From: Alphaproteobacteria bacterium | GTDB taxonomy: Bacteria; Pseudomonadota; Alphaproteobacteria; JAAEOK01 | Assembly (NCBI GenBank): GCA_024244705.1 | Contig: JAAEOK010000045.1 | Location: forward strand, 1-64,000 | Reading direction: 5' to 3' | Length of the DNA: 64,000 bases | Shown here: piece after piece, positions 11,354 through 34,328 of the stretch | Numbering within the stretch: position 1 is the first letter of the stretch | Layout: every line of letters starts with the position of its first letter | The notes under the pieces: generated by a model | What the model was told of the DNA's origin: nothing | What the model saw: only the letters and a program-made list of their open reading frames with translations | The model's database searches: none | Program-made: the position numbers and the translations under genes

Positions 11354-11370
11354 AATTCCGCTCCTCCGCA

Positions 11371-13893: not shown

Positions 13894-13926
13894 GGCGGAC
13901 GTCAAATTGGGACGGGAGCGAGTTAC

Positions 13927-14694: not shown

Positions 14695-14862
14695 GGCAGC
14701 ATTACGGGCGGTCGCCAGGCAATTGCCGACGGCATAATTGCGGTCGTCGATAGACCCGGTCATCGATGAACCATCGGCGGCAACTCAGTTTTGCCTTGAC
14801 GCGATTGAACGGTTAGATTTTTCCGAGTGAGAGAATTCTCGCCCCGCCACATGGGAGGAATT

Positions 14863-15657
14863 ATGGCCCTGGACCTTCCACCTGTTAGATCGAAGTATCG
14901 AGAGGTTCGATATGATAGGGGCCGCCATTGGCGGGCCAAGCTGGGCTTTGTCGTGCTGGAGATGGAGCAAACCGTCGAAGATGATGTCTTCCGTTTGACA
15001 CCGCCTGGCGTCGGCGTGCATTTCAGCAGGCTCGCCATGTCCAACAGCGCCACGATCGAAACCTTGCGGCAAATGGCGCCCGGGATAGAGGCTTCGGCCC
15101 GGTCGATTCTGCCCGAAGATCGCCTCGATGTCGTTTGTTACACGTGTAACTGCGGGACGATGGTCATCGGCGAAGAGGCCGTCGCGGCGGCGCTGACCCG
15201 CGCCAAGCCGGAAGCCAAACCGACCACGGTCATGACCGGCGTCGTACGGTCGCTCAGGGCACTCGGCGCGAAGCGGATCGTGGTGGCGACACCGTATCTC
15301 GATGAAATCAACGCCTACGTATTGCAATTCCTTCAGTCGCACGGGTTCGATGTGCTGGAGCTTCAGGGTCTCAACATCGAGACGAACACCGATATCGATC
15401 TGGTCGATCCGGGATACATGCGCGAGTTCGCTGCCAGCCTCTACCGTTCGGATGCGGATGCCGTGTTCGTATGCTGCGGCGCACTGCGGACGCTCGATAT
15501 CGTGGCCGCGCTCGAAGAAGATATCGGCAAGCCGGCCGTGGTCAGTAACCAGGCGATGATGTGGGACTGTCTGCGCAGTGCCGGGATCGACGACAGGATC
15601 GAAGGATTCGGCCGACTGTTTCAACTCGGCGTTCGTTCGGCCGACGCCGCCGCTTGA
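14863..15657 (+). CDS. Asp/Glu-racemase-superfamily protein (maleate isomerase / arylmalonate decarboxylase type)
   Basis: A 264-residue protein. I start it at ATG 14863, which follows a strong GGGAGGA at 14853; an upstream GTG at 14827 lacks a site. The superfamily uses two active-site cysteines from symmetrical halves. Candidates here are CYTCNCGTM (Cys92, 95, 97) and VFVCCGALRT (Cys204, 205). The region after the first Cys cluster and the SNQAMMWDCLR segment fit maleate cis-trans isomerase-like members. The doubled cysteines at both sites are unusual. Possible roles are isomerising maleate or racemising a hydantoin-like acid; the creatininase and amidase genes downstream make a heterocycle pathway plausible. 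Confidence 0.75.
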   Translation: MALDLPPVRSKYREVRYDRGRHWRAKLGFVVLEMEQTVEDDVFRLTPPGVGVHFSRLAMSNSATIETLRQMAPGIEASARSILPEDRLDVVCYTCNCGTMVIGEEAVAAALTRAKPEAKPTTVMTGVVRSLRALGAKRIVVATPYLDEINAYVLQFLQSHGFDVLELQGLNIETNTDIDLVDPGYMREFAASLYRSDADAVFVCCGALRTLDIVAALEEDIGKPAVVSNQAMMWDCLRSAGIDDRIEGFGRLFQLGVRSADAAA

Positions 15658-15682
15658 ACGCTGGGCGGGTGGTGGCGCGGAC

Positions 15683-16612
15683 CTATTCGGCCGCGGCCGG
15701 GATCTCACCCACATTCGCAATCAGATCGTCGATGAACGCATTGACGATCGAGTGGCGGGCACGGTTGCGGCGCGCGATCAATTCGATTTCGGCAAAGAAT
15801 ATCAGGGTATCCGGCCTGACCGCGCGCATTGCGCCGGATTTCACCCAGCGCTCCGCGTAGTGAGCGGGTAGGAATCCGAGGAATTGTCCGGATAGGACGA
15901 GAAGTGCGATGGCCTCGATATTCGAGGCCTGAGCGGTTGCATTGATCAATTCGCCGAACGGGTGGATGGAATCGGGAATGTAAGTGCGTTTAACGTGTTC
16001 GTATTGCCGCAACTGGTTCAGGTCGGAAAGCGTCTCAGCCGCTTCGTAGACCGGATGCTGCCGGCCGCAGTAAAGGTGAAGGCGTTCGCGGAAAAGCGTG
16101 AAGTATTCGATTCCGGTGGCCCGATTCGTGTATGTGCCCAGTCCGAGCTGAAGGCGCCCATCGACGATCGCGCGCTCGATGTCGTGCGGCGTTCCGACAT
16201 GGATATTTATGCTTACGGCACTTTGCCGTCTCTTGAATCGGGCGATGGCGCTGCTGAGTGGAAAACGGATGTTGGTAATCACGTTATCGATGGTGCCAAT
16301 ATGAAGCTCACCGACCAACCGTCCCCTTAGCGCCTCGACCTCGGAAGTAAAGGTCTCGAGTGAGCGGAACACGCGCTGTGTGGCTTCGTAGACGTGTCGG
16401 CCGGTCTCCGTCAGCCGAAATCCGCTGCGGCCGCGGTCGCAAAGCCGCACACCCAATTTGGCCTCGAGGTCCGACATATGCGAGCTCACGGTAGACTGTC
16501 CGATACCAAGTTCGACTTGAGCAGAAGAAAAGCCGCCACAATCGACGATGGTCGCGAAAACACGCAGGAGACGAAGGTCGACCTGATCAAGCTTGGGGAT
16601 CGGTATGGCCAT
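15683..16612 (-). CDS. LysR-family transcriptional regulator
   Basis: A 309-residue LysR-type regulator: N-terminal winged helix (about 10-70, with FSSAQVELGIGQSTVSSHMSDLE) and a substrate-binding co-inducer domain (about 98-300). It is divergent from the creatininase-like gene at 16779, the usual arrangement for a LysR activator of that operon. A 6-bp-arm inverted repeat at 16648-16665 lies in the shared promoter region and may be its site, giving autoregulation. The inducer is unknown. Confidence 0.9.
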   Translation of the reverse strand: MAIPIPKLDQVDLRLLRVFATIVDCGGFSSAQVELGIGQSTVSSHMSDLEAKLGVRLCDRGRSGFRLTETGRHVYEATQRVFRSLETFTSEVEALRGRLVGELHIGTIDNVITNIRFPLSSAIARFKRRQSAVSINIHVGTPHDIERAIVDGRLQLGLGTYTNRATGIEYFTLFRERLHLYCGRQHPVYEAAETLSDLNQLRQYEHVKRTYIPDSIHPFGELINATAQASNIEAIALLVLSGQFLGFLPAHYAERWVKSGAMRAVRPDTLIFFAEIELIARRNRARHSIVNAFIDDLIANVGEIPAAAE

Positions 16613-16647
16613 TTCCGCCCTTCCGAAAGCAAATGCTATAAATCGAT

Positions 16648-16665
16648 CATGATATTCTAATCATG
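16648..16665. promoter_or_regulatory. Candidate LysR operator CATGAT-N6-ATCATG
   Basis: A perfect inverted repeat with 6-bp arms (CATGAT at 16648-16653, ATCATG at 16660-16665), AT-rich, 35 bp upstream of the LysR start and about 114 bp upstream of the creatininase start. It contains T-N11-A spacing as expected for a LysR-type box. Confidence 0.5.
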
Positions 16666-16676
16666 CTGTTACATCA

Positions 16677-16692
16677 GGAGAAATCAATGTAA
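16677..16692 (+). other. Start-stop element: Shine-Dalgarno followed by ATG-TAA
   Basis: GGAG at 16677-16680 is followed after 6 nt by ATG (16687-16689) and at once by TAA (16690-16692). Such minimal open reading frames can hold an initiating ribosome and influence a leader. It lies in the leader of the creatininase-like operon, about 87 nt before its start. It may be chance. Confidence 0.25.
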
Positions 16693-16778
16693 GAATCCTG
16701 ACTTTGTTATTTTTCGAGTGCCGAAAAACTGCGAATATTTCTGCAGGGCGACCACCGAATTTCCGCGGTCGGGGTGAG

Positions 16779-17603
16779 ATGATGCACGAAACCGTTCTCA
16801 TGGCCGAGATATCCTGGGTCGAGTATGAACGCCGTCTGATTGTGGAGGACGCGATCGTATTGGTCCCGGTCGGCGCCGTTGAACAACACGGCCCGCATAT
16901 GCCTTTGGGAACCGATGCCATCCTGTCGGGCGAAATGGCGCGCCGCGCGGCAGAGCGCGTAGGTGGCATCGTCGCGCCGACCCTCAGCTATGGTTACAAG
17001 TCGCAGCCGCGTACCGGTGGCGGTGATCATTTCCCGGGCTCAACAGGGCTCGATGGTGACAACCTCTCTCATCTGGTGACCGATGTCGTCGCCGAGCTCG
17101 GTCGCACCGGCGCCAAGAAAATTGCACTTATAGACGGGCACTATGAAAATCAATTCTTCCTGACCGAAGGTTGTGAACAGGCCATACGCAGGCTCGAAGC
17201 CAAGGGCATCGACGATGTCAAGGTCCTTAAGATGCGCTATCCGGAAACCGTGAAGCAGGAGACCCTCGATTATCTTGAGCAGTTCTATCCTGATGGGTAT
17301 CCCGGTCTCGACCTCGAGCACGGAGGGATACTCGAGACTTCGATGATGCTCTATTTGTTTCCGCATCTCGTCGACATGAACAAGGTACCACAGGATCCAC
17401 CGGCCTCTTTTCCGCCGTTCGACCTGTATCCCCACGAAGGGCGCGAGTGGGTACCGGAGTCCGGTGTGTTGACCCCGGCGACCAACTCCTCTGCCGAGAT
17501 CGGCCGAATGCTGGTCGAAGAGTTCGTCGAGCTGGTGGCGGGAGCGTTGAGGTCGGCGTTCCGCTCAACCGATTCCTCGATGGTGGAAAGGCGAGTGTCG
17601 TGA
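16779..17603 (+). CDS. Creatininase-family amidohydrolase
   Basis: A 274-residue protein matching Pseudomonas creatininase closely through the active site: metal ligands Glu35, His37 and Asp46 in VEQHGPHMPLGTD, His121 and Glu123 in DGHYEN, and the block YGYKSQPRTGGGDHFPG. However, the two tryptophans that contact creatinine in the Pseudomonas enzyme (Trp154, Trp174) align with Pro155 and Leu177 here. It is therefore a creatininase-type metal amidase whose substrate may be another small amide or lactam. ATG ATG at 16779/16782 follows GGTGAG. It is divergent from LysR and followed by an isochorismatase-family amidase and an ABC importer. Confidence 0.88.
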   Translation: MMHETVLMAEISWVEYERRLIVEDAIVLVPVGAVEQHGPHMPLGTDAILSGEMARRAAERVGGIVAPTLSYGYKSQPRTGGGDHFPGSTGLDGDNLSHLVTDVVAELGRTGAKKIALIDGHYENQFFLTEGCEQAIRRLEAKGIDDVKVLKMRYPETVKQETLDYLEQFYPDGYPGLDLEHGGILETSMMLYLFPHLVDMNKVPQDPPASFPPFDLYPHEGREWVPESGVLTPATNSSAEIGRMLVEEFVELVAGALRSAFRSTDSSMVERRVS

Positions 17604-17644
17604 GACGATTGCCGACCTAGCGGAATTTAAATGGAGGTACCAAA

Positions 17645-18355
17645 TTGAGTTCGTCCGTCCCCGCCGATCCCTACGACTTTCCGTTTGACGGTGATCTCGG
17701 CGCCGAGAACACGGCGGTCATGGTCATCGATATGCAAAAGGATTTCTGCGATGAAGGGGGTTACTTCCATGCCATGGGCTATGACGTATCGGCGATGCGG
17801 GCATTGATCGAACCGATTGGCAAGGTCTTAGCGGCGGCGCGGACACAGGGCTTTCCCGTTATGCACACGCGTCAGGGAAAGCGACCGGACCTATCCGACG
17901 TCCCCGAGGTGGCACGATGGCGGAGCCGCAACGGCGGTGCCGAGATTGGTTCTCCCAGCCCCCTGGGCCGATTCATGATTCGAGGCGAGGCGGGATTCGA
18001 AATTGTCGATGAGTTGAGCCCGGTACCGGGCGAACCGGTCATCGACAAGGCTGGCGCCAGTGCATTCTTCGCCACCGATCTCGATCTCTTACTGCGCAGC
18101 CAGGGCATCCGGAACATCGTCTTCACCGGCATAACGACCGATGTCTGCGTTCACAGCACGATGCGGGCGGCGGCGGATCGCGGTTACGATGGATTGTTGC
18201 TGGAGGATTGCTGCGCCGCGACTGTCGCCAGCAATCACACGGCGGCCCTTAGCATGATCAAACAGGAAGGCGGCTATTTCGGTAGCGTCTCAAACGCGGC
18301 CGATTTCATTGGCGCGATATCGCTGGGTGATGAGGCCACGCGATTGGCAGGGTAG
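17645..18355 (+). CDS. Isochorismatase-family amidohydrolase (biuret hydrolase / RutB-like)
   Basis: A 236-residue cysteine hydrolase. The catalytic triad is visible as Asp in VIDMQKDFC, Lys in VIDKAGASAF and Cys in GITTDVCVHSTMR. The N-terminus (DPYDFPFDGDL, then DNTA-like ENTAVMVIDM) and the RQGKRPDLSD and SPLGRFMIRGE blocks recall biuret and ureidoacrylate amidohydrolases, which split a terminal urea or carbamoyl amide. Start is TTG at 17645 with GGAGGT at 17633. Together with the creatininase-like enzyme it could carry a ring-opening then decarbamoylation sequence, for example a carbamoyl-amino acid to the amino acid, CO2 and ammonia (inference). Confidence 0.86.
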   Translation: MSSSVPADPYDFPFDGDLGAENTAVMVIDMQKDFCDEGGYFHAMGYDVSAMRALIEPIGKVLAAARTQGFPVMHTRQGKRPDLSDVPEVARWRSRNGGAEIGSPSPLGRFMIRGEAGFEIVDELSPVPGEPVIDKAGASAFFATDLDLLLRSQGIRNIVFTGITTDVCVHSTMRAAADRGYDGLLLEDCCAATVASNHTAALSMIKQEGGYFGSVSNAADFIGAISLGDEATRLAG

Positions 18356-18405
18356 GGCAGGTTGGAATGATTGTCGTTCAACAACACACCAGAAGAGGGA
18401 GGCAA

Positions 18406-19362
18406 ATGATGAAATTCACAAGGCGAATGGTTCTCGGTGCGGCGACGGTCTTGGTCGCCGCGTCAGCCTATGGCGGCGCAGCCAACGCGCAGGACAAGAA
18501 GGTCGCGATCGTGCTGCCCGGCAGCATCACCGACCAGGCTTTCAACCAGGTTCTTTATGAGGGCATCGTCCTCGTCGGCAAAGAGACGGGCATGGAGACC
18601 GCCTACAGCGAAAAGGTCAAGCAGGCGGATCAGTCCGAGCATCTGGAAGATTACGCCCGACGCGGCTATGGCTTGGTCTACGGTGCCGGCGGCGAGTTCG
18701 TCGATTCGACCAAGCGCGCGGCTCGACGCTATCCGGAGACATTGTTCGCGTGCCTCAATTGTTCTGCGGTCGAGGGTGTCGCGACGATCGGCTATGACAA
18801 TGTGTCTATCGGCTACTTGCTTGGCTTTACGGCGGGCAAGATGGTTGAAACGGGCAAGATTGGGATCGTTGCCGGACAGAAAATCGCGCCGGTCCTGCAG
18901 CTTGTCGAGGGCATGACCGCCGGCATGAAGGATGCGATGGGTGGCGGCGAGGTGCTCGTGACCTATACCGAGGATTGGGACGACGTGGCCAAGGCCAAAG
19001 AGGCCACCTTCGGCCAGATCAGCCAAGGCGCCCAGGCCATTATTCCCTATCTGGACAACGGCATCGTCGGCGTCATGCAGGCGCTCGAAGAAAAGGGTAT
19101 GTGGGGGCTTGGCGCAATCACCGATCTCGGTTCCAGCTGGCCGAAGACCAATCTCATCTCGGCCGTTCAAGATTGGCGCCAGGCTATTCTGTTCTATGCC
19201 AACGAGTACGAAAACGGCACCGCCGAGAAGAAGGTATATACCTTCGGCATCGGTACGACGCCGCTGAGCGTCGGCACAATGAACCCAGACATGCCGCCGA
19301 GTGTAAAGGCCGATGTCGAAAAACTCGTCGACGATATGAAAACCGGCAAGTTCAGCATGTAG
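18406..19362 (+). CDS. BMP-family ABC transporter substrate-binding protein
   Basis: A 318-residue periplasmic binding protein of the basic membrane protein family (nucleosides and related purine/pyrimidine compounds). It has a Tat/Sec-like signal peptide (residues 1-29, RRMVLGA then a hydrophobic stretch and ANAQ), then KVAIVLPGSITDQAFNQ, GYDNVSIGYLLGF and an IGTTPLSVG end. ATG 18406 follows GAGGGAGG; the earlier in-frame ATG at 18367 lacks a site. It is followed by a strong terminator-like hairpin and then the ATPase and two permeases, so the binding protein is probably made in excess. It contains no membrane-anchoring lipobox Cys. Confidence 0.9.
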   Translation: MMKFTRRMVLGAATVLVAASAYGGAANAQDKKVAIVLPGSITDQAFNQVLYEGIVLVGKETGMETAYSEKVKQADQSEHLEDYARRGYGLVYGAGGEFVDSTKRAARRYPETLFACLNCSAVEGVATIGYDNVSIGYLLGFTAGKMVETGKIGIVAGQKIAPVLQLVEGMTAGMKDAMGGGEVLVTYTEDWDDVAKAKEATFGQISQGAQAIIPYLDNGIVGVMQALEEKGMWGLGAITDLGSSWPKTNLISAVQDWRQAILFYANEYENGTAEKKVYTFGIGTTPLSVGTMNPDMPPSVKADVEKLVDDMKTGKFSM

Positions 19363-19379
19363 CGAAACCTAACTCCCTG

Positions 19380-19415
19380 GGGCCCCGCGCGCTCGTGCGT
19401 GGGGCCCGTTCTTTT
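19380..19415 (+). terminator. Strong hairpin with T-tract inside the ABC operon (partial terminator)
   Basis: A 12-bp stem (GGGCCCCGCGCG pairing with TGCGTGGGGCCC, two G-T wobbles) with a CTCG tetraloop at 19380-19407, followed by TTCTTTT. It sits between the binding-protein gene and the ATPase gene, so it probably attenuates transcription and sets the excess of binding protein over transporter. It may also protect the 3' end of the upstream message. Confidence 0.75.
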
Positions 19416-19439
19416 GCACCGCCGAACAGCCGGTGAGTC

Positions 19440-20972
19440 ATGCCGACCGTGGCCAGTGAGCATCACCTCGTCGTCGACGGCGTAACCAAGACGTTTGGCG
19501 AATTGCGCGCCAATGACGACGTCAATCTTCATGTCCGAAGAGGATCGATCCACGCCATATTGGGTGAAAATGGGGCCGGCAAGACGACCCTCATGAACAT
19601 CCTGTACGGGCTCTATCAACCTGATGAAGGGCGCATTCTGGTCGATGACCGCGAGGTCAAGATCGAGAGCCCGAAGGACGCGTTGGCCCAGGGCATCGGC
19701 ATGGTGCATCAACATTTCATGCTGGTCCGGCCGTTGACCGTTACCGAAAACGTCATTCTTGGCATGAAACAGGGGAGGGTCGGCCTTGATCTAAAGGCCC
19801 ATGCCACCCGGCTATCCGAACTCAGTGATTCATTTGGCTTCGAGATAGATCCCAATGAAGCCATCTGGAAGCTGCCGATGGGCATGCAGCAGCGGGTCGA
19901 AATCTTGAAGCTGCTCTATCACAACGTCGATATTCTTATATTCGATGAACCGACCAGCGTGCTGACGCCGAGCGAGACTGGCCCTTTTTTCGATGTCCTG
20001 AGGCGCCTGACCGAGGCCGACAAGACGATTCTGTTTATCACCCATAAGCTCGAGGAGGTGATATCGATCTCCGACCGGGTCACGGTGATGCGAAACGGCC
20101 AAGTGACGGCGGAGGTCGAGACAACCGATACGGATGCTCGGGAGTTAGCGCGGCTGATGATCGGTCGCGATGTCGTATTCGACATTCCCCACCGGGACAT
20201 GGAAGCCGGACGGGAGATGCTGCGGGTGGAGAATGTTCGTGCCACCGGCGACAGAGGCATCGGCGCTCTCGACGACATTTCCCTGTCCGTGAAAAGTGGC
20301 GAAATTCTCGGAGTGGCCGGTGTCGACGGCAATGGTCAAGCGGAACTGGCCGAGGTCATCGCCGGTTTGAGGAAGCCCGAATCAGGTCATATTCGGGTTG
20401 GCGGTGAACTGATCGACGATGTTTCGGTGGCCGAACGCAAGCGTCGATGGAAAATCGGTTATGTTCCAGAGGACCGTCACGAAGTAGGTCTTGTCCTCGA
20501 CCAATCTGTCGCCATGAATCTGGTCCTTAGGACCTTTCGTTGGCTGCCATTTGCAAACCACCATGTTCTCAATCCCGGAGCAATCCGCGCCAACGCCGAA
20601 AAGTTGGTCGACCAGTACAATGTACGCCTGCAAAGCATCGAACAAGAGACCCGGTATCTCTCGGGCGGCAATCAACAAAAGCTCATCCTCGCCCGAGAGA
20701 TAGAAGACGGGCCGCAAGTCCTGGTCGTTGCGCAGCCAACCAAGGGACTGGACGTTGGCGCAATCGAATTCGTCCAGAAAACGCTTCTCGAGCAGCGGGC
20801 GAGGGGCGTCGCGATTCTTTATATTTCAACCGAGCTCGAGCATGTGCTCGAGGTAAGCGGCCGTATAGCGGTCATCTTTCGCGGCCGGATAACCGGCTTG
20901 CTCGATACCGCCGAGGCAACCCCGGAGCGCCTCGGCCTGCTAATGGCAGGCGCCGTCGGAGAAGCTGCCTGA
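19440..20972 (+). CDS. ABC transporter ATP-binding protein, two NBDs (nucleoside/simple-sugar type)
   Basis: A 510-residue double ATPase of the NupA/YufO/RbsA class. NBD1 has Walker A GENGAGKT at 42-49, the Q-loop in MVHQHFML and Walker B ILIFDEPTSVL; its signature is the variant LPMGMQQR. NBD2 has a degenerate Walker A (GVDGNGQAE) but a good signature LSGGNQQK, the usual asymmetry in this class. It couples ATP hydrolysis to uptake through the two permeases that follow with overlapping start and stop codons. Confidence 0.92.
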   Translation: MPTVASEHHLVVDGVTKTFGELRANDDVNLHVRRGSIHAILGENGAGKTTLMNILYGLYQPDEGRILVDDREVKIESPKDALAQGIGMVHQHFMLVRPLTVTENVILGMKQGRVGLDLKAHATRLSELSDSFGFEIDPNEAIWKLPMGMQQRVEILKLLYHNVDILIFDEPTSVLTPSETGPFFDVLRRLTEADKTILFITHKLEEVISISDRVTVMRNGQVTAEVETTDTDARELARLMIGRDVVFDIPHRDMEAGREMLRVENVRATGDRGIGALDDISLSVKSGEILGVAGVDGNGQAELAEVIAGLRKPESGHIRVGGELIDDVSVAERKRRWKIGYVPEDRHEVGLVLDQSVAMNLVLRTFRWLPFANHHVLNPGAIRANAEKLVDQYNVRLQSIEQETRYLSGGNQQKLILAREIEDGPQVLVVAQPTKGLDVGAIEFVQKTLLEQRARGVAILYISTELEHVLEVSGRIAVIFRGRITGLLDTAEATPERLGLLMAGAVGEAA

Positions 20973-22072
20973 TGCTGGGCGCAATACGCTTCCTTTATAT
21001 GTTCAAAAGCGTCTGGGCGGTTGTGGCTGCCTTGATCGTTGGCTCCTTCCTCATCAAGCTTGCCGGATCCGATCCAATCGAGGCCTATGTCGCTCTCTTC
21101 AAGGGCGCATTTACGGAATACTATGGCGTCGGTAGCACCCTGGTGAAGATGTCGCCGTTGGTGCTTGCGGGTCTGGCGGTCACCGTGCCGCTGCGGGCTG
21201 GGCAGTTCAACATTGGCGTCGAAGGGCAGATTTACATGGGCGCGCTGTTCGCGACGCTCGCGGCCCTTTATCTTCCCGCTATGCCGGGCTGGCTCCACAT
21301 CCTGGCCGCGTCCTTGTCGGGGATGATTGGCGGGGCGTTTTGGGCCCTGATTCCCGCGATCCTCAAGGCGTACTACCGAGTCAACGAGATTATCGTCACC
21401 CTGCTGATGAACTATGTGGCGATCAACATAGTCAGTTACGCGGTAAGCGGCCCGATGATGGCGCCCGACGCGCCCTATCCCTACTCCCACGAGATACCCG
21501 AAGCCTTGTTCCTGCCTCATGTGCTGCCGCGGACCGACGCCCACCTCGGCGTCGTTATTGGGATCGTTCTCGCCATCGTCATATTCGCCGTATTTCGATA
21601 CGGCACCTTCGGCTTCACCTTGTCCACCGTGGGCAAGAACGCACGGGCCGCCGAGTACGCCGGCGTCTCGGTACGCCGCACCATTGTCCTCGCCTTCGTG
21701 GTCGCCGGTGCCATGGGAGGATTGGCGGGGACGTATGAGGTGTTGGGACTGAAATATCGGCTGTTTCACCATTTCAGCCCGGGATACGGGTACGACGGTA
21801 TCGTCATAACATTCCTCGCCGGCGCCAATCCCCTGTTCGTCGTCATCGCCGCGACCTTCCTGGCCGGCCTGAGAAGCGGTGCCGGTATCATGCAGCGCGC
21901 CGTCGGCGTCGATGCGACGGTAATCGAGGCAATCCAGGGCTTGGTCGTTATCTTTGTTGCGATGGGCCTCGCGTTTCGCTTCGACCGCACATATTGGGCC
22001 AAATTCCTCCATACGCGCAGGGCCGCCGACCGCGGTCTGGCGCCAGGGTCGGGGGGCGACAAGCCACCATGA
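20972..22072 (+). CDS. ABC transporter permease (BMP-type importer, first subunit)
   Basis: A 366-residue integral membrane protein of the nucleoside/branched-chain-type permease family. About ten hydrophobic segments follow a short N-terminus, with AGQFNIGVEGQIYMGA and the coupling-helix region TVGKNARAAEYAGV. The ATG at 20972 shares a base with the stop TGA of the ATPase gene, so I reject the long upstream extension of the same frame. It pairs with the permease at 22069. Confidence 0.9.
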   Translation: MLGAIRFLYMFKSVWAVVAALIVGSFLIKLAGSDPIEAYVALFKGAFTEYYGVGSTLVKMSPLVLAGLAVTVPLRAGQFNIGVEGQIYMGALFATLAALYLPAMPGWLHILAASLSGMIGGAFWALIPAILKAYYRVNEIIVTLLMNYVAINIVSYAVSGPMMAPDAPYPYSHEIPEALFLPHVLPRTDAHLGVVIGIVLAIVIFAVFRYGTFGFTLSTVGKNARAAEYAGVSVRRTIVLAFVVAGAMGGLAGTYEVLGLKYRLFHHFSPGYGYDGIVITFLAGANPLFVVIAATFLAGLRSGAGIMQRAVGVDATVIEAIQGLVVIFVAMGLAFRFDRTYWAKFLHTRRAADRGLAPGSGGDKPP

Positions 22073-23013
22073 TCGAAATTTTTCTCGACCCACAGTTACT
22101 GACGGACTTTCTTCGGACCAGCCTGCGTCTCGCGGTACCGATCACCTTTGCCGCCGTCGGTGGGGTGCTGTCGGAACGGAGCGGGGTCTACAACATTGGC
22201 CTCGAAGGGATGATGCTGGCCGGCGCCTTCGGTGCGGCGGTCGGCGCGTTCTTTTTTGGGACCCCGTTCGCGGGTGTCGTGACCGGCGCGATGTGCGGCA
22301 TGCTTGCGGCCCTAATACTCGCCGTCCTTGGTGTTTCCTTGGGCGTCAACCAAATCGTGACCGGGATCGCAATCAACCTCCTGGTGCTCGGATTGACGTC
22401 GTTCCTGTCACGCGTGGTTTTCGGCGCCCAGGCCAACACGCTCGATCTCGAAGGCTTCCGGCCATTGGCGATCCCGGTCCTGGTTTCGATCCCAGTCATA
22501 GGTCCGGTTTTCTTCGGCCAGGATGCGCTGGTCTATGCCATGTATGGGCTTGTGCCGATGATGTATTACATCATGTTCAAGACCCCCTGGGGGCTGAACA
22601 TTCGAGCCGTCGGCGAGAACCCGCGGGCAGCCGATACAGCGGGTGTTCCGGTTAACCTCGTACGCTATGCCTGCGTTCTGGGAAGCGGCGTTTTTGCTGG
22701 GCTGGGCGGCTGTTTCCTCGTTCTATCCCAGGTCTTTCTGTTTTCGGAGAACATGAGCGCGGGCAAAGGCTTCATTGCCCTTGCCGCGGTTATTCTCGGG
22801 CGCTGGAATCCGATCGGTGCCCTATTGGCCTGTTTGCTCTTTGGATTTTTTGATTCGCTGCAACTTCGATTGCAATTCCTCAATCCCGACGTCCCGCACG
22901 AGATTTTCGTGGCGCTGCCCTACATGGTTTCGATATTGGCGCTGGTCGGGCTCGTCGGTCGGCCAACACCGCCCGCCGCTGCGGGTATCCCCTACCGACG
23001 GGAGGCGAAATGA
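22069..23013 (+). CDS. ABC transporter permease (BMP-type importer, second subunit)
   Basis: A 314-residue membrane protein homologous to the first permease: GVYNIGLEGMMLAGA, then the coupling-helix block AVGENPRAADTAGV, and a C-terminus with several transmembrane helices. The ATG at 22069 overlaps the upstream TGA in an ATGA arrangement. It completes a BMP, ATPase, permease, permease importer. Its own stop overlaps the start of the amidinotransferase gene, tying the imported compound to that enzyme. Confidence 0.9.
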   Translation: MIEIFLDPQLLTDFLRTSLRLAVPITFAAVGGVLSERSGVYNIGLEGMMLAGAFGAAVGAFFFGTPFAGVVTGAMCGMLAALILAVLGVSLGVNQIVTGIAINLLVLGLTSFLSRVVFGAQANTLDLEGFRPLAIPVLVSIPVIGPVFFGQDALVYAMYGLVPMMYYIMFKTPWGLNIRAVGENPRAADTAGVPVNLVRYACVLGSGVFAGLGGCFLVLSQVFLFSENMSAGKGFIALAAVILGRWNPIGALLACLLFGFFDSLQLRLQFLNPDVPHEIFVALPYMVSILALVGLVGRPTPPAAAGIPYRREAK

Positions 23014-24068
23014 GCATGTCCACAATCGATCCGGCCGCTCGGTCGTCTCGGCGAGACAGCCGATCCGAGGGTGCCGGTTGTTCAACCGCAGCCGGTGACG
23101 CGATCTATGTGCGATCAGAGTGGGGTGAGCTCAAGGAATGCATATACGGGTGGAGCGGTCAGTTCATTTTTCCAAAGTTTTTACAAGATGCCGACGTGCG
23201 GCCATCGGGCGATTTCCGGCAGTTCTGGTTTGAGAATCAGGAACGCGACGTGCGCGACGCCGACCCGGATTATTACCAACGCTGGAGTGCGCAGATCGAG
23301 GGCGCCGTCAAGTTTCTCGAGGGCGAGGGCGTGCGGGTGCATCAACCCACCTACATCAGCGAAGCAAACCTGCGATATCCGCGCGGCGAAAACCATGGCG
23401 TGTTGACCGGTTGGCTTCGCGATCCCTTCGTCACAATCGCCAATAGTGTTATCGAGTTGGCGCCCCGATCGCTCTTCCACCGGCGCCAACGCTTTTCCAT
23501 ACGTCACATACTGGCCGAGACGATGGATCGTGGCGCCCGCTACTTCGCCCAACCCGATGGTGGCGCAGACGATAGTCTCGATGGTCCCGGCTGGGGTTAC
23601 CTCGAAGGCGGCGACATTTTCGTCCTCGGTAAAAAGATCTTGGTCGGTCACTCCGGCAATGCCAGCAACCCGGAAGGCGCGCGATGGCTTCAGCACGTCT
23701 TGGGAACCGATTACAATGTCGAGATGGTTGCGATCGATCCCAATTTCGCCCATCTCGATTGCGTGCTGTCGACGCCACGCGAAGGCGTGGCAGCGGTTTG
23801 CAAGTCAGCGATGATCGAAGGGATTCCAGATTGCCTCCGCGATTGGGACATCATCGACGTTCCGTTCGAGATCGCGAAAATCCATTTAGGCTGCAACAAC
23901 CTGATAATGAACGACCGTCTCGTCGTCATGCCATCGGAGCAGGCGCACGACACGCTCGCCGCTGAGCTCGAGGCGCGCAAGTTCGACGTCGTTCGCCTGC
24001 CATATGGTGATGTATATGCGGTTGGCGGCTCGTTCCGCTGCGCACATCAGCCGCTGATTCGGTTGTAG
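23010..24068 (+). CDS. Amidinotransferase-family protein (pentein fold, AGAT-like)
   Basis: A 352-residue protein of the glycine/inosamine amidinotransferase branch of the guanidino-modifying superfamily. Visible catalytic elements: RDPFV, EGGDIFVLGK (Asp), FAHLDCVLST (His) and Cys344 in GGSFRCAHQPLIR, spaced as in AGAT and arginine deiminases. It moves or hydrolyses the amidino group of arginine-like substrates through a Cys-amidino intermediate. Its start overlaps the permease stop (ATGA), so it is translationally coupled to the importer. The imported molecule is therefore a likely amidino donor or acceptor. Whether it is a transferase or a hydrolase cannot be read from sequence. Confidence 0.82.
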   Translation: MSMSTIDPAARSSRRDSRSEGAGCSTAAGDAIYVRSEWGELKECIYGWSGQFIFPKFLQDADVRPSGDFRQFWFENQERDVRDADPDYYQRWSAQIEGAVKFLEGEGVRVHQPTYISEANLRYPRGENHGVLTGWLRDPFVTIANSVIELAPRSLFHRRQRFSIRHILAETMDRGARYFAQPDGGADDSLDGPGWGYLEGGDIFVLGKKILVGHSGNASNPEGARWLQHVLGTDYNVEMVAIDPNFAHLDCVLSTPREGVAAVCKSAMIEGIPDCLRDWDIIDVPFEIAKIHLGCNNLIMNDRLVVMPSEQAHDTLAAELEARKFDVVRLPYGDVYAVGGSFRCAHQPLIRL

Positions 24069-24070
24069 GC

Positions 24071-25093
24071 ATGGTTACCAACAGCAGCGTCCACACCATG
24101 CGCGCGGTCGTGGTTGATGAGCCTGGGAACATCGATCACCTGCACCTGAAAACCGTTCCGGTCCCCGAACCACAACCCGGTGAGATTCGGATCCAGGTTG
24201 CCTATGCCGGCTGCAACTGGAGCGACATTCAGAAGCGGCAGGGTGTCTACCCTGACCCGATCGTCTATCCGGCGATCCTTGGGCTCGAGGTATCGGGGCG
24301 AGTCGACGCGGTCGGCAAGGGCGTTCGTGGATTCCGCATCGGCGACCGAGTTGCGGCAATCACCGGCCCCTCTCATCTTGGCGGGTTTGCAGACTATTGC
24401 ATGGTCGCCGCTCGGTATGCGATGCGAATGCCGGATTCTGTTTCGTTGGAACTCGGTGCCGCATTTCCTATGGTGGCGATGACCGCCTACCACCTGTTGT
24501 TCAGCGCCCATAGGCTGCGCAAGGGGGAGGTCCTTCTGGTCCACGCCATCGGCGGTGCGGTCGGCCTCATGTTGACCCAGATCGCGGTTCGCGAAGGCGC
24601 CATCGTGATCGGCACCGTCGGCACGGCGTCCAAGGCGCAGAAGGCTCTCGATTATGGCGCCGCCCTCGTCGTCGACAACACCGGCGAAGATTTCGTTGCC
24701 GCGGCGATGACATTCACCGAAGGTCGCGGCGTCGATCTGGTCATCGATTCGCTTGGCGGGACAATCTTGCCGCGTAGCTTCGATGCGCTTCGCACCTACG
24801 GCAAGATCATCAATATCGGCGAAGCGGCCGGTTACCCGGATTTCGATATTCGTCCGAAGCTTTACGAAAAGTCGACCTCGCTAGCCGGGTTCGAATTGCA
24901 CCATGCGGACCCGGGCTCGACGCGGTGGCGGCGCGGCCTGCGATATGTCCTAGAGGGACTTAGCGCGGGCTGGCTCAGGGTTCCGATCGAAGGCATTTAC
25001 GACCTCGAAGATTACGAGGCCGCGCAAAGACGATTGGAAAATCGCGGCGTCAGCGGGAAGTTGTTGCTAAGTGTCGATCCCAGCCTCAATTAG
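24071..25093 (+). CDS. MDR-family NADPH:quinone oxidoreductase-like protein
   Basis: A 340-residue medium-chain reductase with GLEVSGRVDAVG, GDRVAAI and the cofactor motif LLVHAIGGAVGLMLTQIA, without structural-zinc cysteines, as in zeta-crystallin-type quinone reductases. It starts 2 nt after the amidinotransferase stop, so it is the last gene of the importer operon. The third such reductase in the window. The natural substrate is unknown. Confidence 0.85.
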   Translation: MVTNSSVHTMRAVVVDEPGNIDHLHLKTVPVPEPQPGEIRIQVAYAGCNWSDIQKRQGVYPDPIVYPAILGLEVSGRVDAVGKGVRGFRIGDRVAAITGPSHLGGFADYCMVAARYAMRMPDSVSLELGAAFPMVAMTAYHLLFSAHRLRKGEVLLVHAIGGAVGLMLTQIAVREGAIVIGTVGTASKAQKALDYGAALVVDNTGEDFVAAAMTFTEGRGVDLVIDSLGGTILPRSFDALRTYGKIINIGEAAGYPDFDIRPKLYEKSTSLAGFELHHADPGSTRWRRGLRYVLEGLSAGWLRVPIEGIYDLEDYEAAQRRLENRGVSGKLLLSVDPSLN

Positions 25094-25100
25094 GAACGGG

Positions 25101-25712
25101 TCAGTCAAGAACTTCAAAATGGGCATCCTTCGGCGGCGCGCCGCCTTCGCCATGGATCGGCAGAATGTCCTGAGGACAGGTCGAGAAGGCAACGTAGCAG
25201 TCCATATCCGCGCGGAATGTGATGTATTGGCCCGGTTCGCATACGGTAGGTCGGAAATCGAGGCTGTTGCGATCATCGAGGACGGGAATGTTCATGAACA
25301 CGTTGAATGAGGCGGCGATCGGGAAGGGCGGCGTGACGCCGAGTTCAAGCAGCCCTTCGAACATGTTGTCCTGGCAATTTCGATGATAGCCCTCGACCCC
25401 CAGTACCTGATAGCGATAGCGATCGCAGGCGGCCATGAAGGTGTCGTGAATGCCCGGCGTCGTGTCTTCGAGGATAGTAAGGATCGGCCGTCGTCGATTG
25501 GTAACCAACGAATCGCCGACTATGGGATTGAGACGCACATTCCAGACCCGGGTCGACTCCATCGACATGTACTCTTGGAGCTCGTAGGCGTTAAGCGCCC
25601 AGGTATCGACCACTTGGGTGCCGTGCGTGTTTATGAGTTTGACGCGCTGGCCAGCAGTCAGACGGGCGGCCTTGCCGTGACCGGCGGGGATCAAGACACG
25701 GTTTTCGGACAT
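25101..25712 (-). CDS. DUF1989 family protein (urea-carboxylase-associated / carboxyguanidine-deiminase-like)
   Basis: A 203-residue protein of the DUF1989 family. The core INTHGTQVVDTWAL, TNRRRPILTILEDT, CRYQ-like RYRYQVLGVEGYHRNCQDN and FNVFMNIPV are typical, with conserved His and Cys that probably bind a metal. Members of the family form the CgdAB carboxyguanidine deiminase in guanidine assimilation; others are uncharacterised. Only one subunit is present here and no guanidine carboxylase is in the window, so I do not assign that reaction. ATG at 25712 follows a GGAGG-type site. It is convergent with the amidinotransferase operon and divergent from the ammonia-lyase gene. Confidence 0.82.
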   Translation of the reverse strand: MSENRVLIPAGHGKAARLTAGQRVKLINTHGTQVVDTWALNAYELQEYMSMESTRVWNVRLNPIVGDSLVTNRRRPILTILEDTTPGIHDTFMAACDRYRYQVLGVEGYHRNCQDNMFEGLLELGVTPPFPIAASFNVFMNIPVLDDRNSLDFRPTVCEPGQYITFRADMDCYVAFSTCPQDILPIHGEGGAPPKDAHFEVLD

Positions 25713-25849
25713 GATATGAGCCTCCTCAAATCGGTCGCGAGATCGATATGACAACAGACTAATACGGTAGCCGCTCGCCGACAATTGCCGTGCATCGCGT
25801 GGCATCGCACGAATCGAGTTAGGCTGCGAAATCGAAGACGGAGGGTCCA

Positions 25850-27382
25850 TTGACAGAAATACTGACAATCGAACCGCGGGGTCTCGATTTTGAAACCATG
25901 CGACGGGTTTCGGCCGGCGGGTTGGCCTTGGACCTGTCCCCCGAGGCGCGATCGGAAATCGACGCCGGTTACGACGTCGTGCGTCGTGTGGTCGGCGAGG
26001 GAAGGCGAACATATGGCGTCAACACGGGGTTCGGTGCGCTGGCCGATCGGGTCATACCGGAAGAGGACCTGGAGGAGCTGCAAAGACGCCTGGTGCTGTC
26101 CAACGCATGCGGCACCGGGGGTCCGCTTCCGGATCAGATCGTTCGCAAGATTCTCGTCCTAAAGATCGCCGCTCTGGCGAGCGGCCGGTCCGGCGTTCGG
26201 CGAGACCTCGTCACCGCGCTGATCGCCCTTTACAACGCCGACATCCTGCCCTGCGTGCCGGCCCAGGGCTCGGTTGGCGCCTCCGGCGACTTGGCGCCGT
26301 TGGCCCATATCGCCGCGGTCCTCATCGGCGCCGGCGAGGTTCGCGCTGGAGATCGGATTCTCTCGGCAGCCGAAGGTCTCGAAATGGCGGGGATCAGCAA
26401 TTTTCGATTCGCGCCGAAGGAAGGCTTGGCGATGGTCAACGGTACGCAAGTCTCGACTGCGCTCGCGCTTGCCGGGCTGTTCGCGTCCGAAGCCGTGTTC
26501 GCCGCCGCCGCCGTGTCCGGCATGTTGAGCGTCGAAGCGGCTCTCGGCCAGGATATGGCCTTCGACCCCCGTATTCAGGAGGCCCGCGGCCAGGCCGGAC
26601 AACGGGACATGGCAGCAGCCTACCGTGCCCTGCTCGATGGTAGCGGTTTGCGCGACCGTGCGGCACGCGATGGACGCATCCAGGACCCCTACAGCCTGCG
26701 TTGTCAGCCGCAAGTGATGGGTGCCGCGCTTGATATCTTGCGGAACACATCAACGACATTGGCGCAGGAAATCAACGCACTCACCGACAACCCTCTGGTC
26801 TTCGCCGAGGACGATGCAATTCTGTTCGGCGGTAATTTTCACGCCGAGCCGGTCGGGCTCGCCAGCGATATGATCGCGCTCGCGCTTGCGGAGATGGGGG
26901 CCATTGCGGAGCGCCGGATTGCGCTTCTGACCGACAGCAATATCAGCGGCCTGCCGGCATTCCTTGTGGAAAGCAGTGGACTCGATTCCGGGTTCATGGT
27001 GGCGCAGGTCGTCGCCGCCGCCTTGGTCAGCGAAAACAAGAGCCGGGCGTTTCCGGCGAGCGTCGACAGCATTCCGACAGTGGCGAACTTTGAAGATTTT
27101 GTCAGCATGGCAACCCACGGGGCGCGGCGTCTCGGCGAGATGGCGGACAATGCAGCCGGGGTCGTCGCGATCGAGTTGCTGGCGGCCTGCCAGGGGCTGG
27201 AATTCCGCCGTCCGGACCGCTCCAGCGAGGTCCTCGAACGCGCCGTCGCCGCCGTTCACGAACGCGTTCCCTCCTATGACACCGATCGCTTTTTCGCGCC
27301 CGATGTGGCGGCCATCAAGGACCTGGTCAAAAGCGGCTACTTCCTTGACCTGGTTCCGGAAAATCTACGGTTTGCGATCTGA
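25850..27382 (+). CDS. MIO-dependent aromatic amino acid ammonia-lyase, divergent HutH homologue
   Basis: A 510-residue lyase of the histidine/phenylalanine ammonia-lyase family. The MIO-forming Ala-Ser-Gly is at 144-146 in GSVGASGDLAPLAH. Tyr55 (TYGVNTGFG), QDPYSLRCQPQVMGA, GGNFHAEPV and Glu in NFEDFVSM are in place. The substrate-pocket His83 of histidase (LVLSHAAG) is Asn85 here (LVLSNACG), and NQEDHVSM has become NFEDFVSM, so histidine is unlikely to be bound in the normal way. Start TTG at 25850 with GGAGGG. No hutU, hutI or hutG is present; the neighbours are a DUF1989 protein and a ureohydrolase. A novel amino-acid or betaine substrate is possible. Confidence 0.85.
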   Translation: MTEILTIEPRGLDFETMRRVSAGGLALDLSPEARSEIDAGYDVVRRVVGEGRRTYGVNTGFGALADRVIPEEDLEELQRRLVLSNACGTGGPLPDQIVRKILVLKIAALASGRSGVRRDLVTALIALYNADILPCVPAQGSVGASGDLAPLAHIAAVLIGAGEVRAGDRILSAAEGLEMAGISNFRFAPKEGLAMVNGTQVSTALALAGLFASEAVFAAAAVSGMLSVEAALGQDMAFDPRIQEARGQAGQRDMAAAYRALLDGSGLRDRAARDGRIQDPYSLRCQPQVMGAALDILRNTSTTLAQEINALTDNPLVFAEDDAILFGGNFHAEPVGLASDMIALALAEMGAIAERRIALLTDSNISGLPAFLVESSGLDSGFMVAQVVAAALVSENKSRAFPASVDSIPTVANFEDFVSMATHGARRLGEMADNAAGVVAIELLAACQGLEFRRPDRSSEVLERAVAAVHERVPSYDTDRFFAPDVAAIKDLVKSGYFLDLVPENLRFAI

Positions 27383-28387
27383 TCAGGTAGCCTTCCCGCG
27401 TTCCGCGAGCCATGCCTCGCGGCGCTCGGCCCACCAAGGCTGAGCACAAATACGGCCGAGGAATTCGATGACCGTATGGGCGCCGAGATAGGCGGTCACA
27501 CCGGTGCCGACATCGAGTTGCGGGTTTACTTCGACGAAATCGAACCCAACGATCCGCGTGCGTTCCGCGATCGCGGTCAAGGTGTCTCGCAATTCCGCAT
27601 AGGCCATGCCATTGGGCTCCGCGGATACGCAGCCAGGGACGAGCGAAATATCGAGCACATCGATATCGATACTGACGTAACAATTTTCGCCCTCGGGTAC
27701 CAGCGCGGCCAGACCCTTCGGGCCGATTTCATGAAACTCGTTCATGGTGACGATTCGATTTCCGTCGACAATGGAATCCTCGATCCAATCGCGGCCATGG
27801 CGAAGGCTGCGAATTCCGGCCTGGATCAAATTCTTGACGTGAGGCATCGGTGACAGATGACGGAATGCATGCCCGTTGGTGAAACGCAGGTCATGGATGA
27901 AAGGCGCATAGTCGTTGTGAGCATCGAAGTGCACGATATGCATGGGTTCCGTGAACACCCGCGCCACCGGATAGGTGATTGAGTGGTCACCGCCGAGAAT
28001 GATCGGAAGGGCGCCGCGGTCGAGGACACGGCGAACGAGGCTGCTGATGTTGTCGAAGGTCTGCTTGACGTCGGTGGGCCAGATCTCGGCGTCGCCGACA
28101 TCTGCGATCATGCCATGCGCCATTTCCGGGACCAGGTATTCTTCGCTTGTTTCCGGATCGTAGTAGCCATGGCCCATGGCGAATCTCAGCGAATGTTCGC
28201 GGAGCGCCCGCGGTCCAAAGCGGGACCCGGCCATGAATGGCGAGCCTTCGTCGGTCGGAACGCCGATCACGGCGATGGCGGCGTCCAACTCGTCGACATT
28301 CGTGCAGATCGGGGCGCGCAGGAACGATGGAATTCCGACGAACGGCCACATCAGGCTGGGGTTGGCATCCTTGTCATCAGAAGACAT
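27383..28387 (-). CDS. Ureohydrolase (agmatinase/guanidino-acid hydrolase family), copy 1
   Basis: A 334-residue manganese ureohydrolase. Metal ligands are visible in GGDHSITYPV, HFDAHNDY and SIDIDVLD. The substrate loop reads VPGCVSAEPNGM in place of the APGTGTP-x-GG of standard agmatinases and of the second copy at 57896, so specificity probably differs; a guanidino acid or a smaller guanidine is possible. ATG 28387 has upstream purines. Its stop directly abuts the stop of the convergent ammonia-lyase. It is probably co-transcribed after the amidohydrolase-2 gene (43-nt gap). Confidence 0.87.
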   Translation of the reverse strand: MSSDDKDANPSLMWPFVGIPSFLRAPICTNVDELDAAIAVIGVPTDEGSPFMAGSRFGPRALREHSLRFAMGHGYYDPETSEEYLVPEMAHGMIADVGDAEIWPTDVKQTFDNISSLVRRVLDRGALPIILGGDHSITYPVARVFTEPMHIVHFDAHNDYAPFIHDLRFTNGHAFRHLSPMPHVKNLIQAGIRSLRHGRDWIEDSIVDGNRIVTMNEFHEIGPKGLAALVPEGENCYVSIDIDVLDISLVPGCVSAEPNGMAYAELRDTLTAIAERTRIVGFDFVEVNPQLDVGTGVTAYLGAHTVIEFLGRICAQPWWAERREAWLAERGKAT

Positions 28388-28430
28388 CGCTGGGCTCCGT
28401 TGATTGGTCCGGCCGGATCGGCGCCACAAG

Positions 28431-29384
28431 TCAGGCGTCGAGGCGAAGGATACGAACCGCGTTGGCGCCGATGATGGCCTCTTTTTCTTCGACCGACAGC
28501 AATGGCAATTCCATTACCCGGTCAATCGTGCGGTCGAGATCGTACCAAGGAAAATCCGAACCCATCATGACGCGGTCGCTGCCGACGTTCACTATCAATT
28601 GGGCGAGTTCCTGGTCGTTGGGTCCATTGTCGCTCTCGGTCCATTCGATTATTTCGCAACAATCGAAGTAGGCGTTGGCGTGGATCTCCGCGATTTCACG
28701 TGCCTGCTGCCACGTCGCGCCACCCATGTGCGCCAGTACGATCGGGAGATCCGGAAAGGCGGCGAGGGCGTCGCCAAAGGCGCGCGGTTCCGCGAAACCC
28801 TTGCCATCGAGGTCCGGGCCGGAATGGCCAACCACCGGCAATCCGAGTTCCTGACACAAGGCATAGGTCGGCCACAATCGTTTGTCGCCCATATGGAATT
28901 CCTGGGCCGGGCCATGCAATTTAATACCTCGCGCACCATCGCTTTCGGCCAGATCTCGCAGGTGGTCGGCATTTTCCTGGTCGCTGAGCAAATTCACATC
29001 GGCGCAAATGAAAGTAACAATTTCCGGATGATCGCGGCCGATTTCGCAGGCCCAACGGTTGAAGGCAACGAAGTCCTGGCGTAGGCGTTCCTCGATTTCG
29101 CCAAGGGCCTTCTCCCGCTGGCTCGGTCCCAGGTCCGAGGGCAAGGCGTCGATGAATTCCTGCCGCACGACCTCGGCGATAAACAGATTGACCAGGACCG
29201 ACCGCGAAATGTTCGCGGTTTTCATGGCCCCGAGTAGATCTTGTACGGTCCCGGCCAAACCGCTAATCGCGACATCGGCCTGCCGACCGTATTCCCAGAT
29301 TTCATAACCTTCCTTGGCGGCAATTCCGGACTGCGCATCCTGATAGATATGAATGTGAGAATCGATTCTGACCGGACTGCTCAT
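28431..29384 (-). CDS. Amidohydrolase-2 family TIM-barrel metal hydrolase/decarboxylase
   Basis: A 317-residue protein of the amidohydrolase_2 family (ACMSD, LigW and lactonase relatives). HIH occurs in IDSHIHIY at about 8-14, later His in VVGHSGPD and LAHMGG, and Asp in MGSDFPW near the C-terminus, all expected metal or catalytic positions. It could hydrolyse a lactone or decarboxylate an acid. It lies upstream of the ureohydrolase on the same strand. Substrate not identifiable. Confidence 0.8.
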   Translation of the reverse strand: MSSPVRIDSHIHIYQDAQSGIAAKEGYEIWEYGRQADVAISGLAGTVQDLLGAMKTANISRSVLVNLFIAEVVRQEFIDALPSDLGPSQREKALGEIEERLRQDFVAFNRWACEIGRDHPEIVTFICADVNLLSDQENADHLRDLAESDGARGIKLHGPAQEFHMGDKRLWPTYALCQELGLPVVGHSGPDLDGKGFAEPRAFGDALAAFPDLPIVLAHMGGATWQQAREIAEIHANAYFDCCEIIEWTESDNGPNDQELAQLIVNVGSDRVMMGSDFPWYDLDRTIDRVMELPLLSVEEKEAIIGANAVRILRLDA

Positions 29385-34322: not shown

Positions 34323-34328
34323 CGAGCG

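What the first reader, a model, noticed from the sequence alone, without database searches (positions are those of the whole stretch)
18406..25093. BMP-type importer translationally coupled to an amidinotransferase
Binding protein, ATPase, two permeases, amidinotransferase and an MDR reductase are on one strand with ATGA-type overlaps at four of the junctions. BMP importers are known for nucleosides. Coupling to an AGAT-like enzyme implies uptake of an amidino donor or acceptor, or an unknown guanidino-nucleoside-type compound.
Basis: partly seen in the sequence, partly recalled or inferred. Interest (0 to 1): 0.6.

Follow-up and report, generated by a model that had tools for sequence, protein, structure and literature searches.

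The report
Importer-deiminase operon for cyclic guanidine
A rare, conserved bacterial gene set seems to import a small ring-shaped guanidine compound, open the ring and strip its nitrogen step by step; the exact compound is not known and the chemistry is still inferred.

Summary
Three junctions overlap (TGATG, ATGA, ATGA), not four. The interval starts too late: the run begins with a creatininase-family gene (16782-17603) and a biuret-hydrolase-like cysteine hydrolase (17645-18355), behind a divergent LysR gene. Creatininase-like gene, BMP importer, amidinotransferase-like gene (amd) and MDR gene recur together in six alphaproteobacterial loci, so the association is real; the ATGA coupling is not conserved.

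Amd has the fold of AGAT-type amidinotransferases (HsvA Z 37, AGAT 36, arginine deiminase 30) and a complete active site, but EGGD where HsvA and SxtG have DAAD. A hydantoinase/carbamoylase gene lies nearby in 9 of 15 loci. I read amd as more likely a deiminase than a transferase. All six cluster creatininases keep the metal ligands but lack both tryptophans of known creatininase, and this genome has a separate creatinine-type cluster, so plain creatinine is less likely.

Best reading: a catabolic operon that imports a creatinine-like cyclic guanidine, opens the ring, deiminates the guanidino acid and hydrolyses the ureido product. Genes and residues are shown; substrate and chemistry are inferred. 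New variant of known kinds.

The parts
14863..15657 (+). EutA / arylmalonate decarboxylase-like protein (racemase or isomerase superfamily); possible member
   Evidence: PF17645 106.7 bits; EutA model 194.6 bits, below cut-off 318; present beside the cluster in 3 of 6 loci (window, L018, L045); both Cys motifs (CNCGT, VCCGAL) conserved in these three
15683..16612 (-). Divergent LysR-type regulator
   Evidence: HTH_1 and LysR_substrate; divergent LysR gene beside the creatininase-like gene in the window, L045, L017 and L018 at 52-70% identity, a more distant one in L025
16782..17603 (+). Creatininase-like ring hydrolase lacking Trp154 and Trp174
   Evidence: TIGR04448 306.5 bits, cut-off 235; metal ligands kept, Trp154->Pro and Trp174->Leu; own group in tree, 90/93
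17645..18355 (+). Isochorismatase-like cysteine hydrolase, biuret-hydrolase-like but with changed substrate residues
   Evidence: NF050097 316.8 bits, below cut-off 370; D36, F41, K142, C175 kept, K145->A, Q215->E, V218->Y
18406..19362 (+). BMP-family periplasmic binding protein
   Evidence: PF02608 130.9 bits; closest solved Lbp, 2hqb, AtzT; Glu97 in GGE motif
19380..19407 (+). GC-rich hairpin between binding protein and ATPase genes (attenuator- or terminator-like)
   Evidence: fold of 19363-19439, z -2.06
19440..20972 (+). ABC importer ATPase (two-domain, sugar/BMP type)
   Evidence: NCBIfam matches; 59-79% identical in the 5 other cluster loci
20972..22072 (+). ABC importer permease 1
   Evidence: PF02653 135.8 bits
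22069..23013 (+). ABC importer permease 2
   Evidence: PF02653 139.5 bits
23010..24068 (+). amd: AGAT-fold pentein, proposed guanidino-acid deiminase; active site D138, E199, D202, H248, D250, C344
24071..25093 (+). MDR-family NAD(P)H-dependent reductase, role open
   Evidence: ADH_N and ADH_zinc_N; quinone_pig3 224.6 bits, below cut-off 296.8; in 6 of 6 cluster loci
25101..25712 (-). DUF1989 protein (urea-carboxylase-associated type), convergent; possible member
   Evidence: PF09347 155.4 bits; 87% identical neighbour in L045; start chosen by comparison with L045

Best explanation
A LysR-controlled catabolic operon for a small cyclic guanidine. The BMP-type ABC importer brings in a creatinine-like ring compound (2-iminoimidazolidin-4-one or hydantoin type). 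The creatininase-like enzyme opens the ring to an open-chain guanidino acid. Amd attacks the guanidino carbon with Cys344, releases ammonia and hydrolyses the thiouronium intermediate, giving an N-carbamoyl (ureido) acid. The cysteine hydrolase (here and in L045) or an M20 carbamoylase (in relatives) removes the carbamoyl group, giving an amino acid, CO2 and ammonia. Shown: the gene set, its conservation, intact active sites and altered pockets. Inferred: the substrate, the order of steps and that amd is a deiminase rather than a transferase. The roles of the MDR, EutA-like and DUF1989 proteins are open.
For: Creatininase-like, importer, amd and MDR genes together in 6 loci. M20 hydantoinase/carbamoylase gene in the fetched flank of amd in 9 of 15 loci with amd at 45% identity or more (two of the nine supplied the M20 query sequences); L018 and L025 M20 proteins pass the NF006769 cut-off. 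Full catalytic set of amd invariant in 10 of 10 close rows, EGGD rather than the DAAD printed for HsvA and SxtG. Metal ligands of the creatininase-like enzyme kept in 6 of 6. In L018 and L025 an agmatinase-family gene, closest to 3-guanidinopropionase, proclavaminate amidinohydrolase and guanidinobutyrase, stands in the same cluster. Glu97 of the binding protein and Glu at the BiuH 215 place fit a cationic ligand.
Against: By sequence and fold amd is closer to amidinotransferases (Z 35-37) than to deiminases (Z 30 and less). Human DDAH is recalled to have an Asp at the Glu199 place, so EGGD alone does not decide. The window itself has no M20 gene in the cluster; the carbamoylase role of the cysteine hydrolase is a guess. 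L017 and L020 show neither cysteine hydrolase nor (for the clade-A copy) an M20 gene of their own, though L020 is a short contig. The ligand is not known and no binding contact was mapped.
Confidence: 0.5

Rival explanations
1. Amd is a true amidinotransferase: the operon imports a guanidino compound and moves its amidino group onto a cellular amine.
For: Nearest by sequence and fold are HsvA, SxtG, AGAT and StrB, all amidinotransferases.
Against: Neighbours are hydrolases; carbamoylase genes beside amd in 9 of 15 loci have no role after a transfer; EGGD instead of DAAD.
Confidence: 0.25
2. A second creatinine-use operon: creatinine is imported and opened to creatine; amd deiminates creatine to N-carbamoylsarcosine, and the cysteine hydrolase gives sarcosine.
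For: The creatininase-like protein passes the creatininase equivalog cut-off (306.5 against 235); an N-carbamoylsarcosine amidohydrolase is among the weaker solved relatives of the cysteine hydrolase (53.9 bits).
Against: Trp154 and Trp174 are lost in 6 of 6 cluster members, while 10 of 10 other homologs keep an aromatic at 154 and 8 of 10 at 174; this genome has a separate creatininase cluster with an M24/Creatinase_N gene.
Confidence: 0.14
3. An ordinary nucleoside or nucleobase importer with unrelated enzyme genes beside it.
For: BMP proteins with known ligands bind nucleosides (BmpD paper PMC7093131, passages read); D43, F46 and N47 are kept.
Against: The same enzyme genes accompany the importer in 6 loci with varied order; no nucleosidase, phosphorylase or kinase gene was recognised among them.
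Confidence: 0.06

Closest known systems
AGAT-type amidinotransferases (human AGAT, StrB1, SxtG, HsvA)
   Same: Fold over nearly the whole protein (Z 35-37), catalytic Cys, His and acidic residues aligned
   Different: About 20% identity, EGGD instead of DAAD, catabolic neighbours with carbamoylases
Arginine deiminase and DDAH (guanidino hydrolases)
   Same: Same pentein fold (Z 27-30); only Pfam family that matches is ADI, just under cut-off for P0004 (21.7 against 22.8)
   Different: More distant in fold score than the transferases; not itself an ADI by cut-off
Creatininase (Pseudomonas putida, PDB 1j2t) with creatinase in creatinine use
   Same: Creatininase equivalog over cut-off, metal ligands kept
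   Different: Both tryptophans lost, no M24/Creatinase_N gene recognised in the cluster, BMP importer and amd instead
Biuret/triuret hydrolase with bmpA-nupABC importer in nitrifiers (mSystems 2025, PMC12625717, passages read)
   Same: BMP importer beside a biuret-hydrolase-like gene; that paper also notes one archaeal biuH near a creatininase-like gene
   Different: Q215 and K145 changed here, no allophanate hydrolase recognised in the cluster, amd present
AtzT, atrazine periplasmic binding protein (PDB 6pi5)
   Same: BMP-family binding protein, 100.6 bits to the profile
   Different: No Glu at the 97 place; different enzyme set

Membership tests
Pentein guanidino-modifying enzymes | Catalytic Cys, His and acidic residues on the alpha/beta propeller fold | tested here: met
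   D138, E199, D202, H248, D250, C344 invariant in A3; fold matches with Z up to 37
AGAT-type amidinotransferase | AGAT-type fold | tested here: met
   HsvA, SxtG, AGAT, StrB rank first
AGAT-type amidinotransferase | DAAD acidic motif | tested here: not met
   EGGD in amd; DAAD printed for HsvA and SxtG; AGAT's full motif recalled only. That the motif is defining is my inference
AGAT-type amidinotransferase | Transfer of the amidino group to an amine | not testable with these tools
   needs an assay
Arginine deiminase (PF02274) | Pfam gathering score | tested here: not met
   21.7 bits against 22.8 for P0004
Guanidino-acid deiminase (function) | Ammonia and a ureido product from a guanidino acid | not testable with these tools
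   only context: M20 genes in 9 of 15 loci
Creatininase | NCBIfam equivalog score | tested here: met
   306.5 against 235; 4 further cluster members 283.6-304.9
Creatininase | Metal ligands E34, H36, D45, H120, E122 | tested here: met
   6 of 6
Creatininase | Trp154 and Trp174 of the substrate pocket (role recalled) | tested here: not met
   P/A and L in 6 of 6
Biuret hydrolase (BiuH) | Catalytic D36, K142, C175 | tested here: met
Biuret hydrolase (BiuH) | Substrate residues K145 and Q215 | tested here: not met
   A and E in the window, S and E in L045; importance from PMC7948467, passages
Biuret hydrolase (BiuH) | NCBIfam cut-off | tested here: not met
   316.8 against 370
BMP-type ABC importer | BMP binding protein, double ATPase, two BPD_transp_2 permeases | tested here: met
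Nucleoside-binding BMP proteins | Pocket that binds nucleosides | tested here: inconclusive
   D43, F46, N47 kept, Glu97 unusual; contacts not mapped in 3D

The most novel reading that the evidence does not exclude
The operon takes up and dismantles hydantoin-type products of oxidised guanine (iminoallantoin and guanidinohydantoin): the creatininase-like enzyme opens iminoallantoin, PuuE-like enzymes of relatives open the hydantoin form, amd turns the shared guanidino-ureido acid into allantoate, and allantoate-amidohydrolase-like M20 enzymes finish. This would be a dedicated recycling route for oxidatively damaged guanine. Pointers only: M20 subfamily and PuuE-like genes in L018 and L025, an 8-oxoguanine deaminase gene (697.9 bits, cut-off 532) next to the M20 gene in L025, a purine-type importer family, and a creatininase pocket without its tryptophans.
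Probability: 0.08. Interest if true: 0.8.

Novelty: new variant of a known kind. Interest (0 to 1): 0.5.

Why it matters
If right, it gives a testable function to a pentein branch that no Pfam family claims, shows a creatininase subfamily turned to another substrate, and ties a BMP importer to guanidine rather than nucleoside nutrition. Cyclic guanidines (creatinine relatives, oxidised guanine, arginine glycation products) are nitrogen sources with few known uptake and breakdown routes (general knowledge).

Tried and rejected
Rejected or unproductive: (1) 'Four overlaps': only three found. (2) Riboswitch control: no Rfam match above gathering scores anywhere in the window. (3) Biuret hydrolase for the cysteine hydrolase: score and key residues fail. 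(4) First model of amd from 10 close sequences was poor (pLDDT 62.7); repeated with 22 diverse sequences. (5) Canavanine: clade-B loci L023 and L026 carry a Cys/Met-type PLP enzyme and homoserine dehydrogenase, which hints at canavanine use there, but I recognised neither in the window cluster; the key paper (10.1039/d2cb00128d) is not held, a related one was read in passages (PMC10018355). (6) The agmatinase-family protein of the window (27383-28429, -) is only 26% identical to the one in the L018 cluster, so it was not counted as a part. (7) Histidine ammonia-lyase 25850-27382 has a 68% identical neighbour in L045 but passes as plain HutH (613.6 bits, cut-off 539.15); left out of the parts.

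Literature: ten searches of the open PMC library listed no paper that I recognised as describing a creatininase-amidinotransferase-BMP importer set. Only listings, starts of abstracts and the passages named were seen, so this is not proof of absence.
Full report
OBSERVATION. The window carries on the + strand a BMP binding protein 18406-19362, ATPase 19440-20972, permeases 20972-22072 and 22069-23013, amd 23010-24068 and an MDR reductase 24071-25093. Three junctions overlap (TGATG, ATGA, ATGA); amd/MDR is a 2-base gap and BMP/ATPase a 77-base gap with a hairpin. The claim of four overlaps is wrong by one.

THE UNIT IS LARGER. Upstream on the same strand lie a creatininase-family gene 16782-17603 (TIGR04448, 306.5 bits, cut-off 235) and an isochorismatase-like hydrolase 17645-18355 whose best model is biuret hydrolase, below its cut-off (316.8 against 370). 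A LysR gene is divergent (15683-16612, -), and an EutA/arylmalonate-decarboxylase-like gene (14863-15657) lies beyond it. A convergent DUF1989 gene follows the MDR gene.

CONSERVATION. One scan of genome contigs with a two-row alignment of amd gave 15 loci. Four of these (L017, L018, L020, L025) carry creatininase-like, BMP importer, amd and MDR genes. A sample of 385 genomes of the class added G183 (L045), syntenic from the EutA-like gene to DUF1989 at 70-91% identity. With the window that makes six loci. The set is rare in that sample: amd over 600 bits in 4 of 385 genomes including the window's own, the binding protein at E up to 1e-60 in 6 of 385, the creatininase profile at E up to 1e-50 in 10 of 385; only the own genome and G183 appear in the strong matches of all three. 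Order varies (MDR before amd in L020; amd divergent in L025), so the association, not the overlap, is what is kept.

AMD. By sequence amd finds HsvA, AGAT, StrB and SxtG. A model with mean pLDDT 88.2 from 22 sequences aligns to HsvA (Z 37.3, rmsd 4.5 A, 324 residues), SxtG 36.0, AGAT 35.8 and StrB1 35.1, then arginine deiminase 30.5, ArgZ 28.2, NnhA 27.7, DDAH 27.6. D138, E199, D202, H248, D250 and C344 are invariant in the 10 rows of A3. The acidic site reads EGGD, where the printed HsvA and SxtG rows read DAAD. In the wider alignment of 22, D138, GGD and H248 stay invariant. No Pfam family passes its cut-off for P0004; all 10 rows of A3 match only ADI at E up to 0.01. So 'AGAT-like' is right by fold; transferase chemistry does not follow from it.

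CONTEXT FOR A DEIMINASE. Among 15 loci whose amd is at least 45% identical to the window's, 9 have an M20 hydantoinase/carbamoylase gene in the fetched flank: L017, L018, L021, L023, L024, L025, L026, L045, L061 (L018 and L023 supplied the query sequences). None is seen in the window, L019, L020, L022, L031 or L046; the window has the cysteine hydrolase instead, L019, L020, L022 and L031 are short contigs or have amd near an edge, and L046 has full flanks without it. L021 and G028 look like the same genome and were counted once. In a second group (clade B, tree support 100/97) amd sits beside its own LysR gene, an SBP_bac_3 amino-acid-type importer and the M20 enzyme. Deimination of a guanidino acid followed by hydrolysis of the ureido product is the simplest common logic. 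Five loci with amd at 35% identity or less (L016, L027-L030) show no specific partner: only a weak ATPase match in L028 and L029. The window's own genome has M20 homologs elsewhere (two above cut-off), not tied to this operon in the stretches read.

RING OPENING. All six cluster creatininases keep E34, H36, D45, H120, E122 but have P or A at 154 and L at 174. Ten other homologs have an aromatic at 154 in 10 of 10 and at 174 in 8 of 10. In 4 of the other loci (L079, L081, L082, L084) an M24 gene lies near (Creatinase_N shown for L079, L081 and L084). L079 is in the window's own genome (contig C86) with two creatininases, a deaminase-family gene, an importer, urease-accessory-like genes and a PuuE-like gene (urease and importer labels by recall of the sequences). 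The cluster enzymes form their own group in the tree (90/93). That both tryptophans matter for creatinine is recalled; the solved chains include variants at both places, and no paper was found. A substrate other than creatinine is favoured, not proven.

HYDROLASE AND BINDING PROTEIN. The cysteine hydrolase keeps D36, F41, K142, D173 and C175 of BiuH, but K145 is A (S in L045) and Q215 is E in both; in BiuH alanine at these places costs all or over 90% of activity (PMC7948467, passages). Guanylurea hydrolase, a relative that takes a charged substrate, is known (PMC9800807, passages). The binding protein has Glu97 in a GGE motif in 6 of 6 cluster members and in 3 of 5 further relatives (Roseateles, Aminobacter, G259; not G245 or Fischerella), absent from AtzT and Lbp. 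Both changes fit a cationic ligand; neither shows one. Two relatives on plasmids pair the importer with a polysaccharide-deacetylase-family gene and, in Roseateles, an agmatinase-family gene, with no amd listed nearby, so the importer group may serve several related compounds.

MECHANISM AND STATUS OF STEPS. Shown: genes, conservation, intact catalytic residues, changed pockets. Inferred: import of a cyclic guanidine, ring opening by the creatininase-like enzyme, deimination by amd, carbamoyl hydrolysis by the cysteine hydrolase. Unknown: MDR, EutA-like and DUF1989 steps (carboxyguanidine deiminase is recalled to be of the DUF1989 family). The EutA-like protein keeps two Cys motifs, which would fit a racemase or isomerase and hence a chiral substrate, unlike creatinine; this is a weak hint. 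Candidate substrates, all inference: 5-substituted 2-iminohydantoins, iminoallantoin or guanidinohydantoin, arginine-derived hydroimidazolones, creatinine itself.

VERDICT. New variant of known kinds; moderately interesting, chiefly because substrate and deiminase activity can be tested directly.

Noticed in passing
L079 and L096 (own genome, contig C86, about 9591-29000): A separate creatinine-type cluster: M24/Creatinase_N gene, LysR, ABC importer, two tandem creatininase-family genes with aromatic residues at 154 and 174, a deaminase-family gene, PuuE-like gene and urease-accessory-like genes.
   Followed up: partly
L021, L023, L024, L026, L061 and L017:12003-17632: A second, tighter setting of amd: LysR-amd with SBP_bac_3 importer and M20 carbamoylase; on an Agrobacterium pusense conjugative plasmid amd is annotated 'hypothetical protein'. 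Four of these also carry homoserine dehydrogenase.
   Followed up: partly
L086 (G347:C1:5131000-5150000): LysR, importer, SDR, creatininase-family gene and an agmatinase-family gene side by side: a possible creatinine-type route with a ureohydrolase in place of creatinase.
   Followed up: no
window 27383-28429 (-) and 57989-58828 (-); own genome: Ten matches of one agmatinase-family query in the own genome (two may be pieces of one gene), two of them in this window.
   Followed up: no
window 25850-27382 (+): Histidine ammonia-lyase gene over the HutH cut-off, with a 68% identical neighbour at the same place in L045.
   Followed up: no
window 32484-35582 (+): Aldehyde ferredoxin oxidoreductase-like protein (208.3 bits, well below its cut-off) followed by a pyridine-nucleotide-disulfide reductase-like protein.
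   Followed up: no
NZ_CP084754.1 (Roseateles sp. XES5 plasmid) 510697-520427: BMP importer, agmatinase-family gene, two SDRs and polysaccharide-deacetylase-family gene near an annotated ureidoglycolate lyase and glycine cleavage genes.
   Followed up: partly
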